Assembly (NCBI RefSeq): GCF_000424625.1
Contig: NZ_AUKG01000001.1
Location: 1,736,001 to 1,800,000 of the forward strand
Length of the DNA stretch: 64,000 bases
From: Conexibacter woesei Iso977N
Lineage (GTDB): Bacteria; Actinomycetota; Thermoleophilia; Solirubrobacterales; Solirubrobacteraceae
Direction of reading: 5' to 3'
Below, piece by piece: positions 39,690-47,780 of the stretch. Under the pieces are notes generated by a model. That model was not told where the DNA came from. It did no database searches and worked only from the letters and a program-made list of their open reading frames with translations. The position numbers were made by a program, and so were the translations under genes. The first letter of the stretch is position 1; each line of letters starts with the position of its first letter.

Positions 39690-40379
39690 CTACCCGTCCA
39701 GGCCGAGCGCTGCGGCGGCGGCGCGGCCCGCGGCTTCGCCCGCCGCCGCCTGCTGCTCGTCGTCGAGGCGGGCGCCGGTCGCGTCGACCGCGATCGCGAC
39801 GACGGCGCCGAACGCGATCCCGTGCCGGTTGGCAAGGGTTGCCAGCGCACCGGTCTCCAGATCGGCCGCCAGGACGCCCGCGGCGAGCCACTCGGCGGTG
39901 CGCGCCTCGGCGTCGGGCGCGTAGAGGAGGTCGTGGGAGGCGACGAGGCCGGCGCGGTCGGTGGCGTCGGCGACGATCTCCAGGCGCAGCGGCGCGCCGT
40001 CGCCGTTGAAGCCGAGCGCGGACGACACGCCGTCCTGCGCGAGCACGCCGGTCACCGCGACCAGCTCGCCGAGCTTCAGCTCCGGGTCGACGGCGCGCGC
40101 GGTCCCGACGCGGACCATCGTCGCCACGCCGAGGCCGGCCAGCTCCTCGAGGACGATCGCGGCGCTCGGCCCGCCCATCCCGGTCGCCTGGATCGACAGC
40201 AGCTCCCCGTCGCTCGCCGTTCCCGTGTAGCCCCAGAGCCCGCGGTGATGGTTGAGCATCTTGCGGTCGTCGCCGAGCACGACCTGCGCGAGCGCCAGCG
40301 CGCGGCCCGGGTCGCCGGGCAGCAGCGCGCGGGGCGCGACGGTGGCGACGGGGCGGAGGTGGAACGGCGCGGCGGGCAT
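39690..40379 (-). CDS. Nucleoside phosphorylase (PNP/UDP family)
   Basis: A 229-residue enzyme that splits nucleosides with phosphate to a base and ribose-1-phosphate. Family motifs are ALLPGDPGRALALA (phosphate loop), LNHHRGLWGYTG, IQATGMGGPSAAIVLEEL, VRVGTARAVDPELKLGE and the ribose-binding EaadleTgaL-like AADLETGALATLA. Overall it is closest to the uridine/purine (DeoD/Udp) branch; the exact base preference is not clear. TACACT lies 10 nt before the ATG. Confidence 0.88.
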   Translation of the reverse strand: MPAAPFHLRPVATVAPRALLPGDPGRALALAQVVLGDDRKMLNHHRGLWGYTGTASDGELLSIQATGMGGPSAAIVLEELAGLGVATMVRVGTARAVDPELKLGELVAVTGVLAQDGVSSALGFNGDGAPLRLEIVADATDRAGLVASHDLLYAPDAEARTAEWLAAGVLAADLETGALATLANRHGIAFGAVVAIAVDATGARLDDEQQAAAGEAAGRAAAAALGLDG

Positions 40380-40990: not shown

Positions 40991-41974
40991 GTGGTGCTCC
41001 CGACGCGCCGCGTCCTCGTCACGGGCGTGTCCGGTCCGCTGGGCGCGCGCGTCGCCGCGCGCCTGGCCGCCGACCCGTCGGTCGAGCACGTCATCGGCCT
41101 GGACTCGCGCCGGCCGCCCGCGCCGCTGGCCGAGCGCATCACCTACGTCGAGGCGGACCTGCGCCGCTCCGACCTCCAGCAGATCCTGAAGGTGGCGGCG
41201 CCGCACGTCGTCGTCCACCAGGACATCGTCCAGTTCCCGGAGCCGGGGCGCAGCGCCCGCGCGCTGCACGACCTCAACGTCATCGGGACGCTCCAGCTGC
41301 TGGCGGCCTGCGACCACCTGCCCCAGCTGCAGGCGGTCGTCGTCAGGGGCAGCGCCGCGATCTACGGCTCGGCCCCCGACGCGCCCGCGTTCTTCACCGA
41401 GTCGCTCGCGCGCCGCGGCGTGCTGACCACGCGCTTCCAGCGCGACGTCGCCGAGCTGGAGCGCCTGATCGAGGCGTTCGCGCGCCGCCATCCCGCGGTC
41501 GTCTGCTGCGTACTGCGGATGCAGCCGATCATCGGCCGCGGGCTGACGTCGCCGATCATGAAGCTCTTCGCGGCGCCGGTCGTCCCGACGTTCCTGGGCT
41601 TCGACCCGCGCCTGCAGTTCCTGCTCGACGAGGACGCGATCGGCGCGCTGGCCGCCGCGGTCGACCGGCCGGTGCGCGGCGCGGTCAACGTGGCGGGCGA
41701 CGGCACGGTCTCGCTGGCGCGGTCGCTGCGGCGGCTGGGCAAGCGCGCGCTGCCGATCGCCGGGCCGCTCTACGCGCCGACGGTGAGCGCGCTGGCGCGC
41801 GCCGGGCTGGTCCCGGCGCTGCAGGACGACGTGATCCGCTACCTGCGCCACGGGCGCGGCGTCGACACCACGCGGATGAAGCGGGAGCTGAGGTTCGTTC
41901 CGACCCATACGACGGCCGAGGCGATCGACGCGGTCGCCTCCGCGATCAAGGACGACAACAAGGTGGTGGCGTGA
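40991..41974 (+). CDS. NAD-dependent epimerase/dehydratase (extended SDR)
   Basis: A 327-residue Rossmann-fold protein: RRVLVTGVSGPLGARVAARL (NAD motif, TGxxGxxG) and EADLRRSDL. The catalytic Tyr expected in a YxxxK motif is not obvious after RGSAAIYGSAP, so it may be a non-catalytic SDR or have another chemistry. Start is GTG 40991 (or 40994). It is coupled to the acyltransferase gene, suggesting a lipid or envelope role (inference). Confidence 0.78.
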   Translation: MVLPTRRVLVTGVSGPLGARVAARLAADPSVEHVIGLDSRRPPAPLAERITYVEADLRRSDLQQILKVAAPHVVVHQDIVQFPEPGRSARALHDLNVIGTLQLLAACDHLPQLQAVVVRGSAAIYGSAPDAPAFFTESLARRGVLTTRFQRDVAELERLIEAFARRHPAVVCCVLRMQPIIGRGLTSPIMKLFAAPVVPTFLGFDPRLQFLLDEDAIGALAAAVDRPVRGAVNVAGDGTVSLARSLRRLGKRALPIAGPLYAPTVSALARAGLVPALQDDVIRYLRHGRGVDTTRMKRELRFVPTHTTAEAIDAVASAIKDDNKVVA

Positions 41975-42816
41975 TGCTCGGCCTCGGGCTCGTCCGCGAG
42001 CTGGGCCGCGCGGCCGACGTCGTCGCCAAGCGCCTGCGCGGCGAGTACGACGAGGACGAGTGGGGCTTCGACCCCGAGTTCGCCGACGCCGCCGCGCCGT
42101 TGTTGTCGTTCTTGTACGACCGCTGGTGGCGCGTGACCGCGACGGGGACCGAGCACGTCCCGCGCGAGGGGCGTGCGTTGTTGGTGGCCAACCACGCGGG
42201 CGTGCTGCCGTGGGACGCGACGATGATGGCGCTCGCGCTGCGCCGCGCGGGCGTGTCGCGGGACCCGCGGTTCCTGGTTTTGGATTGGGCCTTCGGGCTG
42301 CCGTGGGCGTCGGTGGCGATCCGGCGCGGTGGCGGCGTCCCGGCCAGCCCCTACAACGCGCTGCGGCTGCTGGAGCAGGACCACCTCGTGATGGTCTTCC
42401 CGGAGGGCGCCAAGGGCGTCGGCAAGCCGTGGTCGGAGCGCTACCGCCTGCAGCGCTTCGGGCGCGGCGGGTTCGTGGAGCTGGCGCTGCGCACGGGCGC
42501 GCCGATCGTCCCGTGCGCGGTCGTCGGCAGCGAGGAGATCTACCCCAAGCTGGGCGAGATTCCGGGCGTGGCGAGGCTGCTCGGCGCGCCGTACATGCCG
42601 ATCACACCCACGTTCCCGCTGCTCGGCCCGTTCGGCGCGATCCCGCTGCCGTCGCGCTGGCGGCTCGCGTTCGGCGCGCCGATCGAGCTCGGCGGGCTCG
42701 GGCCGGAGGACGCCGACGACCGCGCGACGGTCCTGGAGATCGCCGAGGACGTGCGCGGCCGGATCCAGAGCATGGTGTACGACAACCTGATCGAGCGTCA
42801 GGGAGCGTTCCGATGA
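41974..42816 (+). CDS. Lysophospholipid acyltransferase (PlsC-like)
   Basis: A 280-residue acyltransferase of the PlsC/AGPAT superfamily: catalytic block ANHAGVLPWDATMM, second block RRGGGVPAS, third VMVFPEGAKGVGK, and IVPCAVVGSEEIYP. It transfers fatty acyl groups to a glycerolipid or related acceptor at the inner membrane. The ATG at 41974 overlaps the epimerase stop by 1 nt (TGATG); an in-frame GTG precedes it. The ending YDNLIERQGAFR is typical of actinobacterial members. Confidence 0.85.
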   Translation: MLGLGLVRELGRAADVVAKRLRGEYDEDEWGFDPEFADAAAPLLSFLYDRWWRVTATGTEHVPREGRALLVANHAGVLPWDATMMALALRRAGVSRDPRFLVLDWAFGLPWASVAIRRGGGVPASPYNALRLLEQDHLVMVFPEGAKGVGKPWSERYRLQRFGRGGFVELALRTGAPIVPCAVVGSEEIYPKLGEIPGVARLLGAPYMPITPTFPLLGPFGAIPLPSRWRLAFGAPIELGGLGPEDADDRATVLEIAEDVRGRIQSMVYDNLIERQGAFR

Positions 42817-42935
42817 CGTTGACTTCGCGCTCCGGTCGGAGTACCCATAGGAGTCAGAAGCAGGTCGCAAAGTGGGTGGCTCGATCACACCCGCAAGGTG
42901 CCGCCCAGTCGTGGACGAGCGCCGTCGGCCTCGTC

Positions 42936-42982
42936 GCGGGCCGTGCCCGCGGGCGGCGGGATCTCCACCGGGATCCCGCCGC
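42936..42982 (+). terminator. Two hairpins between the acyltransferase and MerR-cyclase genes
   Basis: GCGGG-CCGTG-CCCGC (42936-42950) is followed by a perfect 11-bp stem GCGGCGGGATC/GATCCCGCCGC (42953-42963 with 42972-42982). No T-run follows, and the second stem ends only 18 nt before GTG 43001, so it could end the upstream operon or control the next gene. The gap 42817-43000 holds no gene. Confidence 0.5.
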
Positions 42983-43000
42983 TGATATGAGGTGGGTCGG

Positions 43001-44224
43001 GTGAGCGACGAGCTGCCCGAGACGCTGACGCTGCCCGACGTCGCGCGCCGTGTCGGCGTGACGCCGTCGACGCTGCGGCGCTGGGTGTCGTCCGGGCTGG
43101 TGACGCTGGGCGACGACGGGCTGCCGTCCGCGGCGACGCTGGCGAGCGCGCGCGTGGTCGCGCGGCTGCGCGAGCGCGGGTTCTCGCTGCAGGAGATCCG
43201 GGAGGCGACGGAGTCCGGCAAGCTCGCGTCGTCCTACATCGAGGGCCTGCTGCCCGACGCGCCCGCGCACTGGACGCTGGAGCGCGCGGCGCGTGAGACC
43301 GGGCTGGAGCCGGCGCTGATCGAGCGCATCTTCATGTCGATGGGGTTCGGCGCGCAGGGCGGCCTGGACCATCTGACCGATGACGACGTCCAATTGCTCC
43401 GCTATGCCGCGGCGGTGCTGGCGGCGGGGCTGCCGCTGGTGGCGTTCCTGCAGCTGGTCCGGGTCTACGGGACCGCGATGTCGCAGATCGCCGACGCGGA
43501 GGTCCGGCTGTTCCACCTGTACGTGCACGAGCCGCTGATGCGCGACGGCGTCCCGGGGTGGGAGATGGCCGAGGAGATGGCCGGCCTGGCGCGGGAGATC
43601 CTGCCGCTGGCCTCGCCGATCATGGACCACGCGCACAACCGGTTCCTGCAGCACTTCATCGAGCAGGACGTGATCGGCCACATGGAGGCCGACCTCGGCG
43701 ACGGGCCGCTGGACCTCGGGCGCCTGCGCGTGGCGATCGCGTTCGCCGACCTCGCGGGCTACACGAGGCTGACCGAGGAGGTCGGCGACGAGGAGGCGGT
43801 CAGCGCCGTGGAGCGGTTCGTGGAGCATGTCGAGCTGTCGCTGCCCGACGACGCGCGGATCATCAAGACGATCGGCGACGAGGTGATGGTCGTCGGGTCC
43901 GATCCGGGCGCGCTGCTGGACTGGGCGGTGACGTTCCAGCGCGACGTCGCGCAGCGGCCGCTGCCGCGGATCGGCATGCACTACGGCGAGACGCTGTACC
44001 GCGACGGCGACTACTACGGCCGCGAGGTCAACCAGGCCTCGCGCGTGGCGGCGCGGGCGGCGGGCGGCGAGGTGCTGGTCACGCGGCCGGTCAAGGACGC
44101 TGCGCGTCCCGGGCTGGCCTTCGACCGGATCGGCGAGGTGCGCCTGAAGGGCTTCACGGAGGCGACCGAGCTGTTCCTGGCGCGCCAGGGGGAGCGGCGG
44201 CGGAGGGGACGCCGCCGTGGCTGA
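43001..44224 (+). CDS. MerR-type helix-turn-helix fused to class III nucleotidyl cyclase
   Basis: A 407-residue protein. Residues 1-70 form a MerR-like DNA-binding domain (LTLPDVARRVGVTPSTLRRWVSSGLV). A helical middle (~70-225) may sense a signal. The C-terminal class III adenylate/guanylate cyclase domain (~230-400) keeps the metal Asp residues (AIAFADLAGYT and TIGDEVMVV), the substrate Lys (IIKTIGDE) and the catalytic Asn/Arg pair (EVNQASRVAARA), so it looks active. GTG 43001 follows GAGGTGGG. It overlaps tilS by 8 nt. Confidence 0.85.
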   Translation: MSDELPETLTLPDVARRVGVTPSTLRRWVSSGLVTLGDDGLPSAATLASARVVARLRERGFSLQEIREATESGKLASSYIEGLLPDAPAHWTLERAARETGLEPALIERIFMSMGFGAQGGLDHLTDDDVQLLRYAAAVLAAGLPLVAFLQLVRVYGTAMSQIADAEVRLFHLYVHEPLMRDGVPGWEMAEEMAGLAREILPLASPIMDHAHNRFLQHFIEQDVIGHMEADLGDGPLDLGRLRVAIAFADLAGYTRLTEEVGDEEAVSAVERFVEHVELSLPDDARIIKTIGDEVMVVGSDPGALLDWAVTFQRDVAQRPLPRIGMHYGETLYRDGDYYGREVNQASRVAARAAGGEVLVTRPVKDAARPGLAFDRIGEVRLKGFTEATELFLARQGERRRRGRRRG

Positions 44225-45164
44225 TCTCGTCGAGCGCGTCCGGGCGACCGGGCTGCTCGACGGCCCGGTGGTGGTGCTGCTCTCGGGCGGGCGGGACTCG
44301 ACGGCGCTGCTCGACCTCGCGGTGGTGCTCCTGGGCGCGGAGCGCGTCCGCGCGGTGCACGTCGACTACGGGCTCCGGGGCGTCGCCTCGGACGCGGACC
44401 GGGAGTGGTGCGTCGCGTTGTGCGACAGGCTGGGCGTGCACCTAGATGTAGTACATGTCGCAAGGCCGGAAGGCTCAGGGAACCTCCAGGCCTGGGCGCG
44501 CGACGTCCGCTACGCGCGCGGCGCGGCGGCGGTCCAGGCGTTCCGGCCGGACGCGCGGCTCGCCGTCGGCCACACGCTCAGCGACCAGGTCGAGACCATC
44601 ATGTACCGGTTGGCCGTCTCGCCCGGGCGGCGGGCGCTGCTGGGGATGGAGGCCGCACGCGGCCTGCTCGTCCGGCCGCTGCTGGCCGCCGAGGTCACGC
44701 GCGCCGAGACCGCGACGTGGTGCCTGGACCGCGGGCTGGCGTGGCGCGAGGACGCGTCGAACCTCGACCGCGCCTTCGCGCGGGCGCGCGTCCGGGAGGA
44801 CCTCCTGCCCGCCCTGCGCGCGGTCGACGAGCGCGCCGAGGTCAACGTCCTGCGGACCGCGGCGCTGCTGCGCGAGGAGGCGGCGGTGCTCGACGAGGTC
44901 GTCGCGCGCGAGCTGGAGCCCGACGGCGCCTCGATCGCGCGTGATCGGCTCGCGGCGCTGCCACCCGCGCTGGCCCGGCTGGTCCTGCGGCGGCTGGCCG
45001 AGGACGCCACCGGGACGCTCTGCGCGCGGGCCGCGACGCGCCTTGACGACGTTCTTGCACTGGGCCCCAACGGCCTGCTGGACCTGGGCGACGGGGCCCG
45101 CGCGGCGGTGGTCTCCGGGACCGTCCGGGTGGGGCGCACCCCCGCGCGCGAGCCGAAGCGTTAG
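44217..45164 (+). CDS. tilS: tRNA(Ile)-lysidine synthase TilS
   Basis: TilS adds lysine to C34 of the CAU-anticodon isoleucine tRNA, so AUA is read as Ile. The PP-loop is LLSGGRDSTALLD (SGGxDS form), followed by VHVDYGLRG and AVGHTLSDQVETIMYRL, all family signatures. At 315 residues it lacks the larger C-terminal domains of long TilS forms. GTG start with GGAGGGGACGCC before it; followed by hpt and ftsH, the standard bacterial order. Confidence 0.92.
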   Translation: MADLVERVRATGLLDGPVVVLLSGGRDSTALLDLAVVLLGAERVRAVHVDYGLRGVASDADREWCVALCDRLGVHLDVVHVARPEGSGNLQAWARDVRYARGAAAVQAFRPDARLAVGHTLSDQVETIMYRLAVSPGRRALLGMEAARGLLVRPLLAAEVTRAETATWCLDRGLAWREDASNLDRAFARARVREDLLPALRAVDERAEVNVLRTAALLREEAAVLDEVVARELEPDGASIARDRLAALPPALARLVLRRLAEDATGTLCARAATRLDDVLALGPNGLLDLGDGARAAVVSGTVRVGRTPAREPKR

Positions 45165-45176: not shown

Positions 45177-45707
45177 ATGCGGGACCCACAGATCGGCGAG
45201 ATCCTCGTCCAGCCCGACGACCTCAAGCAGAAGGTGCGCGAGATCGGCCAGCAGATCTCGGCCGACTACGCGGGCAAGGACCTGCTGCTCGTGTGCGTCC
45301 TCAAGGGGGCGGTCTTCTTCCTGGCCGACCTCATGCGCCACATCGAGATCCCGTGCGAGGTGGACTTCATGGCCGTCTCGTCGTACGGGTCGGAGACCGA
45401 CTCCTCCGGGGTCGTCCGGATCCTCAAGGACCTCGACCGGCCGATCGCCGGCCGTGATGTCCTGATCGTCGAGGACATCGTGGACTCCGGGCTGACGCTG
45501 CAGTACCTGATGCGCAACCTCGGGTCGCGCAAGCCGGCGTCGCTGGAGGTGTGCGCGCTGCTGACCAAGCCGGACCGCCGGAAGGTCGAGCTGCCCACGC
45601 GGTACGTGGGCTTCGAGATCCCCGACAAGTTCGCGATCGGGTACGGCCTGGACGTGGCCGAGCGCTACCGCAACCTGCCGTATGTAGCAGCGTTGACGGA
45701 TGGCTAG
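45177..45707 (+). CDS. hpt: Hypoxanthine phosphoribosyltransferase
   Basis: A 176-residue purine salvage enzyme: hypoxanthine/guanine + PRPP to IMP/GMP. The PRPP motif reads DVLIVEDIVDSGLTLQYL; the N-terminal LLVCVLKGAVFFLADL and SSYGSETDSSG flexible loop and the C-terminal VGFEIPDKFAIGYGLD are characteristic. Neighbours tilS and ftsH match the classic cluster. Confidence 0.94.
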   Translation: MRDPQIGEILVQPDDLKQKVREIGQQISADYAGKDLLLVCVLKGAVFFLADLMRHIEIPCEVDFMAVSSYGSETDSSGVVRILKDLDRPIAGRDVLIVEDIVDSGLTLQYLMRNLGSRKPASLEVCALLTKPDRRKVELPTRYVGFEIPDKFAIGYGLDVAERYRNLPYVAALTDG

Positions 45708-45788: not shown

Positions 45789-47780
45789 ATGAGCAGGTTC
45801 TTCAAGAGCGCCGCCTTCCCCATCCTGATCGTGGTGGTGCTGGCCTTCTTCGCCCAGAAGCTGATCTCCACGGGCGATCAGAAGGCGCCGCCCACGTACG
45901 GCCAGTTCGTCGCAGACCTTCAGACGAAGGGCGTCATCAAGAACGTCGACCTGAAGACCAAGGACAACGTGGTCGCGGTCACGCAGACGGATGGCAAGAA
46001 GTACGAGACCGGCTTCACCGACCAGGGTGTCTCGACGCTGCAGAACCAGCTGCAGGTCGCCAAGAAGAACGGGTTCATCCAGAACTACGACGTGGAGCCA
46101 CGCAAGTCGTCGGCTCTACTGGGGCTGCTGACGTACGTGCTGCCCTTCGTGATCTTCATCGCGTTCTGGATCTTCCTGATGAACCAGGTCCAAGGCGGCG
46201 GGTCGAAGGTGATGTCCTTCGGCAAGTCGCGGGCCAAGCGCATGTCGGTGGACTCGCCGAAGATCACGTTCCGCGACGTCGCGGGCGTGGACGAGGCGGT
46301 CGAGGAGCTCCACGAGATCAAGGAGTTCCTGGAGAACCCGAAGAAGTTCCAGGCGCTGGGGGCGCGGATCCCGAAGGGGGTCCTGCTGTACGGGCCTCCG
46401 GGCACCGGCAAGACGCTGCTGGCGCGCGCGGTCGCCGGTGAGGCGGGCGTGCCGTTCTTCTCGATCTCCGGCTCGGACTTCGTCGAGATGTTCGTCGGTG
46501 TCGGCGCCTCGCGCGTGCGTGACCTGTTCGAGCAGGCCAAGCAGAACTCCCCGTGCATCATCTTCATGGACGAGATCGACGCGGTGGGTCGCCACCGCGG
46601 TGCCGGTCTCGGCGGCGGGCACGACGAGCGCGAGCAGACGCTGAACCAGCTGCTCGTCGAGATGGACGGCTTCGAGATGAAGGACAACATCATCTTGATC
46701 GCCGCCACCAACCGCCCGGACATCCTGGACCCGGCGCTGCTGCGCCCGGGCCGCTTCGACCGCCAGATCGTCGTCGACCGCCCCGACCGCAAGGGCCGCT
46801 CGAAGATCCTCGAGGTCCACACGCGCGGCAAGCCGCTGGCCAAGGAGATCAACGTCGACGACCTCGCCGGTCAGACGCCAGGCTTCACGGGCGCGGATCT
46901 CTCGAACCTGGTCAACGAGGCTGCGCTGCTCGCCGCCCGCAACGGCAAGCGCGAGATCACGCAGAACGAGCTCGAAGAGGGGATCATGCGCGTGATCGCG
47001 GGTCCCGAGAAGAAGACCCGTGTGATGGGCGAGAAGGAACGGCTCATCACGGCCTACCACGAGATGGGCCACGCGATCGTCGGGCACTTCCTCGAGCACT
47101 CCGACCCGGTGCACAAGGTGTCGATCATCTCGCGCGGCCAGGCGCTGGGGTACACGATCTCGATGCCGCAGGAGGACAAGTTCCTCACGACGCGCGCCGA
47201 GCTGCAGGACACCATGGCGATGACGCTGGGTGGCCGCGCGGCGGAGGAGATCGTCTTCCAGGAGATCACGACCGGCGCCTCCAACGACTTGGAGAAGGTC
47301 ACCGCGACCGCGAAGCAGATGGTCATGCGGTTCGGCATGAGCGAGCGGCTCGGCCCGCGCGTCTTCGGCCACGACCACGGTCAGCCGTTCCTGGGTCGCG
47401 AGTTCTCGAGCGAGCCGGACTACTCCGACGAGATCGCTCGCGAGATCGACGACGAGATCCGCCGGATCGTCGAGAGCGCCCACCAGCGCGCGAAGGACAT
47501 CCTCGAGGAGCACCGCGAGCACCTCACCGTGATCTCGGAGATCCTCCTGAAGCGCGAGACGATCGAGAAGGAGGAGTTCGTCGCGCTCCTCGACGGCAAG
47601 ACCGAAGAGGACGTCTTCGGCCCCGACGAGACGCCCGACGAGTCCACCCCTCCGGGCACCGCGGCCCCGGCCGACAAGGCCGGCCGCGAAGCCCCCCGCC
47701 CCCTGCCCCGCCCGGGCCTGGCCGGCGGCGGCGTCGAAGCCCGCGGCCTCGACGCACCGGAGAGACCCGGCCTCGCATAG
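45789..47780 (+). CDS. ftsH: ATP-dependent zinc metalloprotease FtsH
   Basis: A 663-residue membrane AAA+ protease that degrades unstable and misassembled membrane proteins. It has two membrane helices (about 8-25 and 111-131), Walker A GPPGTGKT (202-209), Walker [14 protein letters not shown], the second region of homology [21 protein letters not shown], and the zinc site HEMGH (424-428) with later SNDLEKVT. The last ~40 residues are a Pro-rich disordered tail. It ends at a strong terminator. Confidence 0.96.

What the first reader, a model, noticed from the sequence alone, without database searches (positions are those of the whole stretch)
43001..44224. MerR DNA-binding domain fused to an apparently active nucleotidyl cyclase
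Seen: HTH at the N-terminus and intact cyclase residues (two Asp, Lys, Asn, Arg) at the C-terminus of a 407-residue protein, followed directly by tilS. A protein that could both bind DNA and make cAMP/cGMP is rare; it might be a self-contained second-messenger switch.
Basis: partly seen in the sequence, partly recalled or inferred. Interest (0 to 1): 0.55.

Follow-up and report, generated by a model that had tools for sequence, protein, structure and literature searches.

The report
cAMP-making enzyme built onto gene regulator
This soil-bacterium protein joins a MerR-type DNA-binding gene regulator to an enzyme expected to make the signal molecule cAMP, and it suggests that a known acid- and fat-sensing domain of tuberculosis-type cAMP enzymes began as a gene regulator that lost its DNA-reading part.

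Summary
Window 43001-44224 encodes 407 aa: MerR HTH (10-71), Rv1264-type regulatory domain (39-217) and class III cyclase (243-391) with all six catalytic or adenine-selecting residues; ATP is the expected substrate. Matches over 400 bits occur in 35 of 53 genomes of its order, with tilS just downstream in 70 of 75 loci. The closest solved relative, mycobacterial Rv1264, matches all but the HTH. The regulatory half is homologous end to end with stand-alone tandem-MerR regulators (hhalign E 4e-22; best of 20 shuffles 0.07), and so are HTH-less Rv1264-type domains (E 8e-16). The HTH is basic and conserved in this order, acidic on average in cyclases of other groups, truncated in Rv1264 types. 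Papers name fatty acids as ligands of Rv1264, Rv2212 and Rv1828. Best reading: a fatty-acid/pH-sensing adenylyl cyclase that kept its ancestral MerR head. DNA binding is plausible, untested; this genus lost a wing tryptophan. A conserved structured RNA, not in Rfam, precedes the gene.

The parts
43001..44224 (+). MerR HTH - Rv1264-type regulatory domain - class III adenylyl cyclase, 407 aa
43025..43213 (+). First MerR-type HTH (residues 9-71; recognition helix about 22-30 with T24, R26, R27, W28)
43262..43525 (+). Second MerR-like HTH plus long helix (residues 88-175)
   Evidence: profile match of this segment of the family to HTH2 (E 3.7e-12) and to HTH1 (E 7.7e-6) of stand-alone MerR regulators; helices
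43556..43699 (+). Long linker helix (residues 186-233), counterpart of the Rv1264 alphaN10 switch; H218 aligns with an Rv1264 histidine in that helix
   Evidence: helix; alignment; switch histidine described in PMC4174876 passage, (its number is not given there)
43721..44188 (+). Class III cyclase catalytic domain (residues 241-396)
43748..43750 (+). D250, metal-binding Asp
   Evidence: 79/79; role from knowledge of class III cyclases
43865..43867 (+). K289, adenine-selecting Lys
   Evidence: 79/79; role from knowledge of class III cyclases
43877..43879 (+). D293, second metal-binding Asp
   Evidence: 79/79; role from knowledge of class III cyclases
44009..44011 (+). D337, adenine-selecting Asp
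   Evidence: 79/79; role from knowledge of class III cyclases
44030..44032 (+). N344, transition-state Asn
   Evidence: 79/79; role from knowledge of class III cyclases
44042..44044 (+). R348, transition-state Arg
   Evidence: 79/79; role from knowledge of class III cyclases
42990..42995 (+). AGGTGG, likely ribosome-binding site, 5 nt before the GTG start
   Evidence: sequence
42857..42985 (+). Conserved structured RNA element: three-way junction P1-P3, hairpin P4, strong terminal hairpin P5; no Rfam match
   Evidence: Rfam
42819..42848 (+). Sigma-70-like promoter of the RNA: TTGACT, 17-bp spacer, TACCCA
44217..45164 (+). tilS, downstream neighbour in 70 of 75 loci with enough sequence
   Evidence: TIGR02432 110.3 bits, cut-off 93.6
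45177..45707 (+). hpt (hypoxanthine phosphoribosyltransferase)
   Evidence: conserved position in 51 of 55 loci; gene name recalled, not searched
45789..47780 (+). ftsH (AAA protease)
   Evidence: conserved position in 43 of 45 loci; gene name recalled, not searched
41974..42816 (+). Acyltransferase (plsC-like), upstream neighbour, not conserved in this place
   Evidence: Pfam PF01553

Best explanation
It is an adenylyl cyclase of the Rv1264 type that kept the whole MerR-type transcription-factor module from which, in my reading, that cyclase family's regulatory domain descends. SHOWN by sequence and predicted structure: the first 230 residues are a tandem-MerR module homologous with stand-alone FtsR/Rv1828-like regulators; the rest is a class III cyclase with complete ATP-type catalytic residues; among the cyclases compared, the DNA-reading head is basic and nearly invariant only in this order's family. 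INFERRED: the protein works as a homodimer, as MerR regulators and homodimeric class III cyclases do; the module binds a fatty acid or senses pH next to the alphaN10-like linker helix; that signal flips the linker and so switches the catalytic dimer; the same change alters how the paired HTH heads sit on DNA. The cell would get cAMP (read by its CRP-type protein) and a direct change at one or a few promoters from one lipid or pH signal.
For: HTH, PF16701 and cyclase all above Pfam cut-offs. Rv1264 holoenzyme 1y10 matches 37-400, E 1e-24; 1y11 Z 24.4, rmsd 7.6, 345 aligned, 31-397. N-terminal model (pLDDT 89.3): best matches are Rv1264N (Z 11.4, rmsd 4.2, 181 aligned), then MerR proteins including DNA complexes (Z to 9.6). 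hhalign to stand-alone MerR regulators E 4e-22 over 206 columns and of HTH-less Rv1264 types to the same regulators E 8e-16 over 172; best of 20 column shuffles 0.072 and 0.012. HTH net charge +5.1 (79 rows, all at least +2) against -2.1 in 24 cyclases of other groups. Six active-site residues 79/79. CRP-type protein in the genome: cNMP_binding plus HTH_Crp_2. Fatty acid named as ligand or activator for Rv1264 and Rv2212 and Rv1828. H218 aligns with an Rv1264 linker-helix histidine.
Against: No activity, ligand or DNA binding was or could be measured. In the window protein the wing residue W42 (76/79 rows) is P and P35 (73/79) is T; close relatives L001 and L092 have M and L at 42. Stand-alone regulators are not uniformly basic there either (33 rows, mean +3.3, range -7 to +8), and the other-group cyclases keep R27 in 21 and R51 in 19 of 24, so charge and erosion are partial markers. 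No operator was found; the one promoter in front has a normal 17-bp spacer, not the 19-20 bp usual for MerR targets. H218 is H in only 51 of 79 rows and 6 of 24 Rv1264 types. Rv1264 works without the HTH. Pocket residues of the Rv1264 lipid site were not compared. pTM of the full model is only 0.54; no dimer was modelled.
Confidence: 0.55

Rival explanations
1. The MerR head is a structural relic. The protein is an ordinary Rv1264-type pH or fatty-acid-gated adenylyl cyclase; the HTH only helps folding or dimerisation and binds no DNA.
For: Rv1264 and the 24 Rv1264-type relatives aligned here lack helices 1-2 of the head. Cyclases of other groups keep a head with a changed recognition helix. 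The window copy has lost W42 and P35.
Against: In this order's family T24, R27, W28, R51 and R57 are at least 78/79 and the segment is basic in 79 of 79 rows; in the 24 cyclases of other groups it is acidic on average and W28 is gone in all 24.
Confidence: 0.33
2. It is mainly a transcription factor; the cyclase part is a nucleotide sensor with little turnover.
For: The N-terminal half is a full transcription-factor module.
Against: All six catalytic residues are invariant in 79 rows and in all 70 rows of the three cyclase groups, which is not expected for a mere sensor.
Confidence: 0.07
3. Chance match or frame artefact: two neighbouring genes read as one.
For: None found.
Against: No internal stop in any of the 80 frames; 78 of them align from the HTH on, with conserved residues at both ends (two of these are cut by the contig at the C-terminus). 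PF16701 and the MerR match overlap in sequence.
Confidence: 0.01

Closest known systems
Rv1264 pH-sensing adenylyl cyclase holoenzyme (PDB 1y10, 1y11; regulatory domain 2ev1-2ev4)
   Same: Regulatory domain, linker helix and cyclase align over 345 residues; same catalytic residues; a linker-helix histidine aligned with H218
   Different: Rv1264 types start just before the end of the recognition helix ('DFxAEGLL') and lack helix 1, most of helix 2 and the wing of the MerR head
FtsR / Rv1828 (NF050798; PDB 5ydc) and related stand-alone tandem-MerR regulators
   Same: Two MerR-type HTHs and the long-helix region; regulator family A3 aligns with the cyclase N-half end to end; a member, L121, matches FtsR over 16-223
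   Different: No cyclase; the window protein scores 29.4 bits against the FtsR cut-off of 150, and L121 53 bits, so neither is FtsR itself
SCO5550 (PDB 2dg6), a MerR regulator with an unusual dimer
   Same: 172 residues aligned with the N-half, 9-219 (rmsd 7.8, Z 7.8); recorded as having a different dimerisation domain (PMC5045206 passage)
   Different: Stand-alone regulator; the structural match is weak
LuxR-type HTH plus cyclase fusions of mycobacteria (CHD+LuxR)
   Same: DNA-binding domain and class III cyclase in one chain (PMC3466318 passages)
   Different: HTH of another family and, as recalled, at the other end with an ATPase between
Mycobacterium avium Ma1120 cyclase domain (PDB 4wp9)
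   Same: Best catalytic-domain match, Z 24.9, rmsd 1.6, 160 aligned, 36% identity
   Different: No MerR or Rv1264-type regulatory part in the solved chain (165 residues)

Membership tests
Class III adenylyl cyclase (PF00211) | Two metal Asp, Lys/Asp adenine pair, Asn and Arg | tested here: met
   D250, D293, K289, D337, N344, R348 all 79/79
Class III adenylyl cyclase (PF00211) | Catalytic fold | tested here: met
   Z 24.9, rmsd 1.6, 160 aligned to 4wp9; 44.9 bits, cut-off 21.9
Class III adenylyl cyclase (PF00211) | Makes cAMP as a homodimer | not testable with these tools
   needs an enzyme assay
Rv1264-type cyclase (PF16701 + PF00211) | PF16701 regulatory domain joined to the cyclase | tested here: met
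   44.8 bits, cut-off 28.6; match to 1y10/1y11 over 37-400 and 31-397
Rv1264-type cyclase (PF16701 + PF00211) | Switch histidine in the alphaN10 helix | tested here: inconclusive
   H218 present in the window protein, H in 51 of 79 rows, in 6 of 24 Rv1264 types
Rv1264-type cyclase (PF16701 + PF00211) | Activity controlled by pH or fatty acid | not testable with these tools
   needs an assay; reported for relatives
MerR family | MerR winged HTH by profile and fold | tested here: met
   MerR_1 41.5 bits, cut-off 21.6; CadR-DNA 6jni Z 9.6, rmsd 2.2, 68 aligned
MerR family | Conserved recognition helix | tested here: met
   T24 78, R27 78, W28 79 of 79; R or K at 26 in 70 of 79; exceptions L012 (S24) and L077 (D27)
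MerR family | Intact wing | tested here: inconclusive
   W42 in 76 of 79 rows but P in the window protein, M in L001, L in L021
MerR family | Binds a palindrome in a promoter with a 19-20 bp spacer | tested here: inconclusive
   only the promoter in front of the gene was looked at; its spacer is 17 bp; the true target is unknown
FtsR (NF050798) | Score over the curated cut-off | tested here: not met
   29.4 bits against 150
Any Rfam RNA family (for the upstream RNA) | Match over a gathering score | tested here: not met
   0 in the whole window; only matches far below gathering scores in window 42600-43200 (one) and L005 (five), none in L010

The most novel reading that the evidence does not exclude
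The protein is a DNA-bound adenylyl cyclase: operator binding by the MerR heads and cyclase activity are coupled through one fatty-acid/pH-sensing dimer, so that cAMP is made at, and depends on, a promoter. It is the surviving intermediate that shows how the pH- and lipid-sensing domain of mycobacterial cyclases arose from a tandem-MerR transcription factor.
Probability: 0.3. Interest if true: 0.82.

Novelty: new variant of a known kind. Interest (0 to 1): 0.6.

Why it matters
Rv1264 is the well-known case of a cyclase gated by pH. Here its regulatory domain turns out to be homologous with a family of MerR transcription factors, and much of an order of soil actinobacteria still carries the DNA-reading part on the enzyme. 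That would explain why FtsR/Rv1828-type regulators and Rv1264/Rv2212 cyclases are both reported to take fatty acids, gives a direct hypothesis for a shared pocket, and offers a natural system in which to ask whether DNA binding and second-messenger synthesis can be coupled in one molecule.

Tried and rejected
Operator search: upstream regions of 77 sequences were gathered and 19 named for printing. What caught the eye is a conserved structured RNA, not a palindrome; GC-rich palindromes seen by eye in promoter spacers differ between loci, and I did not count them. No systematic operator search was run.

RNA as a cyclase riboswitch: rejected as an exclusive role. The RNA occurs in G100, G356, G376 and G380, which have no match over 400 bits to the cyclase. 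In three of them tilS follows, about 470, 640 and 130 nt on (L176, L183, L184); in the fourth an antiparallel frame follows (L175), which I read as a response regulator from its sequence, not from a search. Conversely G340, G420 and G165 have the cyclase and no RNA match up to E 1, and G346 only one at E 0.47. The order and class searches used stricter filters that lose weak matches.

First pairing of helix P1 was one column off (model R1); corrected, model R2. R1 was not used further. In R2, helices P1 and P2 pair in only 86% of cells; some rows look shifted there.

Cyclase-domain tree (quick method) is weak: outgroup not one clade, long branches; only the order group is well supported (97). 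I do not use it to claim a single fusion event.

A name for the conserved 140-aa upstream neighbour seen in L175, L176 and L184: none, no Pfam match for the L175 copy.

Papers: direct searches were Rv1264 with MerR: one paper, a mammalian lipid study, listing only; PF16701 by accession, name or description: none. Searches were wider; I saw their listings (5 to 20 rows, mostly of longer lists) and read passages of eight papers; of PMC2447327 I saw only the abstract and outline. Most subscription papers are not held; the two Rv1264 structure papers were seen only as references, so the link may be in print there.

Full report
WHAT IS THERE. The window frame 43001-44224 (+) gives 407 residues from a GTG start. 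Pfam finds MerR_1 at 10-71, Ad_Cy_reg (PF16701) at 39-217 and Guanylate_cyc at 243-391, all above curated cut-offs. PF16701 begins inside the HTH, so the two are not separate domains set side by side. AlphaFold on a 63-row alignment gives mean pLDDT 89.6 but pTM 0.54: the parts are sure, their mutual placing is not. The chain holds HTH helices 11-18 and 22-30, helices 44-58 and 63-71, a second pair 93-100 and 104-114, long helices 127-141 and 146-181, and a 47-residue linker helix 186-232 before the cyclase.

CATALYTIC PART. D250, K289, D293, D337, N344 and R348 are invariant in 79 rows and in all 70 cyclase rows of three groups. The Lys/Asp pair is the ATP-type pair (PMC4886424 passage); a title among the structural matches (Ma1120 triple mutant KDA to EGY, with GTP) fits the same rule. 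I therefore expect cAMP, not cGMP. The genome has eight Guanylate_cyc matches and a CRP-type protein, cNMP_binding plus HTH_Crp_2, so cAMP can be read.

In 199 genomes of the class, matches over 400 bits number 35. All lie in the own order, of which the listing shows 53 genomes by my count; none lies in the other 146. tilS starts within 600 nt downstream on the same strand in 70 of 75 loci with enough sequence, hpt follows in 51 of 55 and ftsH in 43 of 45; the five without tilS there are L002, L003, L005, L007 and L011. The upstream side varies.

THE MIDDLE AND THE HEAD ARE ONE OLD REGULATOR. A phylum search with the family profile also hit three short frames of 246-262 aa covering only the first half. 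The two scanned are stand-alone regulators with two MerR_1 stretches each; both also touch PF16701 below its cut-off (E 3.5e-5 and 0.0023). Residues 10-226 of one of them (L121) find the window protein in its own genome with E 1.8e-12, 31% identity; the genome also has a stand-alone relative at G000:C2:46907-47527. Profile against profile: cyclase N-halves (A2, 63 rows) against regulators (A3, 33 rows) E 4e-22 over 206 columns. HTH-less Rv1264-type domains (A5, 24 rows) against regulators: E 8e-16 over 172 columns; against A2: E 9e-29 over 194. With columns shuffled 20 times the best E-values were 0.072, 0.012 and 0.035 in that order. Split by HTH, the second HTH of the Rv1264 type matches the second HTH of the regulators (E 2.3e-12) and, weakly, the first (E 9e-6); the regulators' own two HTHs match each other (E 5.8e-7) (no shuffles were run on these pieces). 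The regulators are FtsR-like: L121 matches NF050798 over 16-223 (53 bits, cut-off 150), and the profile finds Rv1828 5ydc (E 0.0017) and many MerR structures, Rv1264 itself only at E 0.1.

STRUCTURE AGREES. The N-terminal model alone (pLDDT 89.3) matches the Rv1264 regulatory domain best (2ev2 Z 11.4, rmsd 4.2, 181 aligned, model 26-222) and then MerR proteins over about 6-87, several solved with DNA (6jni Z 9.6, rmsd 2.2, 68 aligned; 1r8d Z 8.9, rmsd 1.7, 67 aligned). By Foldseek's own E-values only Rv1264 entries reach 0.001; the MerR rows start at 0.017. Z below about 13 can be uninformative for helical proteins; the weight comes from agreement with the sequence tests.

A GRADIENT OF DNA-READING. 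In the order family the HTH segment 9-60 carries +5.1 net charge on average (79 rows, range +2 to +11; the window protein +4). In 24 cyclases of the same build from other groups it is -2.1 (range -9 to +3), with W28 replaced in all 24 (20 by L), T24 mixed and R57 E or D in 20; they do keep R27 in 21 and R51 in 19. Stand-alone regulators average +3.3 but range from -7 to +8, so charge alone does not prove DNA binding. Rv1264 types begin with 'DFxAEGLL', which hhalign lays on residues from 26 on, the end of the recognition helix: what is missing is helix 1, most of helix 2 and the wing. A tree of the regulatory domain, rooted by my choice on the regulators, separates regulators from all cyclases (99/96), with the order family as one group (98/95) and the Rv1264 type as one group (92/85); the join of order and other HTH-bearing groups is weak (85/48). 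The simplest story is one fusion of a cyclase to such a regulator, with the head kept in this order, worn down elsewhere and lost in the Rv1264 line. The cyclase-domain tree was too weak to test it.

SIGNAL. Rv1264 holds oleic acid between its regulatory and catalytic domains and Rv2212 is activated by oleic acid (PMC12505454 passage; PMC11606603 passage). A MerR review's table lists fatty acids for Rv1828 (PMC9909328 passage). Homology now ties the three. A histidine of the Rv1264 alphaN10 switch is said to touch the catalytic aspartate in the inactive form (PMC4174876 passage); the Rv1264 linker-helix histidine aligned with H218 is, I believe from recall of its number, that residue. H is found at 218 in only 51 of 79 rows. 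So fatty acid is my first guess for the signal, pH the second; both are inference.

AGAINST DNA BINDING BY THIS COPY. The window protein has P42 where 76 of 79 have W and T35 where 73 have P; its near relatives L001 and L092 have M42 and L42. The recognition helix is intact. Any bench test should include orthologs with W42.

THE RNA NEXT DOOR. Between plsC and the gene lies a conserved element (42857-42985). On 26 sequences a three-way junction with two further hairpins has 93.1% of cells paired, 12 pairs with changes on both sides and 40 such cells against 12.4 in shuffles (0 of 500), and sliding the partners brings pairing down to 38-54%. The window copy alone folds the same way, z -3.78. 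Rfam has no family for it. Of 76 cyclase loci with at least 280 nt upstream, 21 carry it at E up to 1e-3, each just before the cyclase; two weaker hits (L074, L078, E 0.03) lie farther up. In 61 order genomes 13 have one copy each; in a class sample of 61, four, all in the own family and the own genome among them. A promoter-like TTGAC-N16-18-TA precedes 19 of 28 copies looked at, a few of which are the same genome twice. Because four genomes have it without the cyclase, it is probably its own RNA gene or an operon leader rather than a cyclase riboswitch. G473 carries only a remnant of the cyclase beside it.

VERDICT. The direct searches and the wider ones found no held paper that says so, but the key structure papers were not read.

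Noticed in passing
window 42857-42985 (+); also L001, L002, L005, L009, L010, L038, L049, L059, L175, L176, L183, L184: Conserved structured RNA with covariation and, mostly, its own promoter; one copy per genome where found, no Rfam family; precedes the cyclase or tilS, once an antiparallel frame. Possible new non-coding RNA of Solirubrobacterales.
   Followed up: partly
G000:C2:1746470-1747564 (L083, L089): Second PF16701 cyclase in the same genome, Rv1264-type without the MerR head: a natural control for the function of the head.
   Followed up: partly
L121, L122, L123, L134-L167: Widespread family of stand-alone MerR regulators of about 250 aa, FtsR-like, without a cyclase; two HTHs in those scanned from L121 and L122.
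   Followed up: partly
G000:C1:1802446-1802688 (L211): A cNMP-binding domain in a 157-aa frame about 2.4 kb past the end of the window.
   Followed up: no
L187 (G473:C190): Remnant of the MerR-cyclase gene between the RNA and tilS: the frame of the head ends early and only part of the cyclase is recognisable.
   Followed up: no
L039, L043, L047, L050: Records titled Bifidobacterium breve hold typical Solirubrobacterales loci; the record titles look wrong.
   Followed up: no
window 39704-39797 (+): ARAGORN reports tRNA-Ala (cgc); it is 94 nt long in a GC-rich stretch inside long frames and may be false.
   Followed up: no
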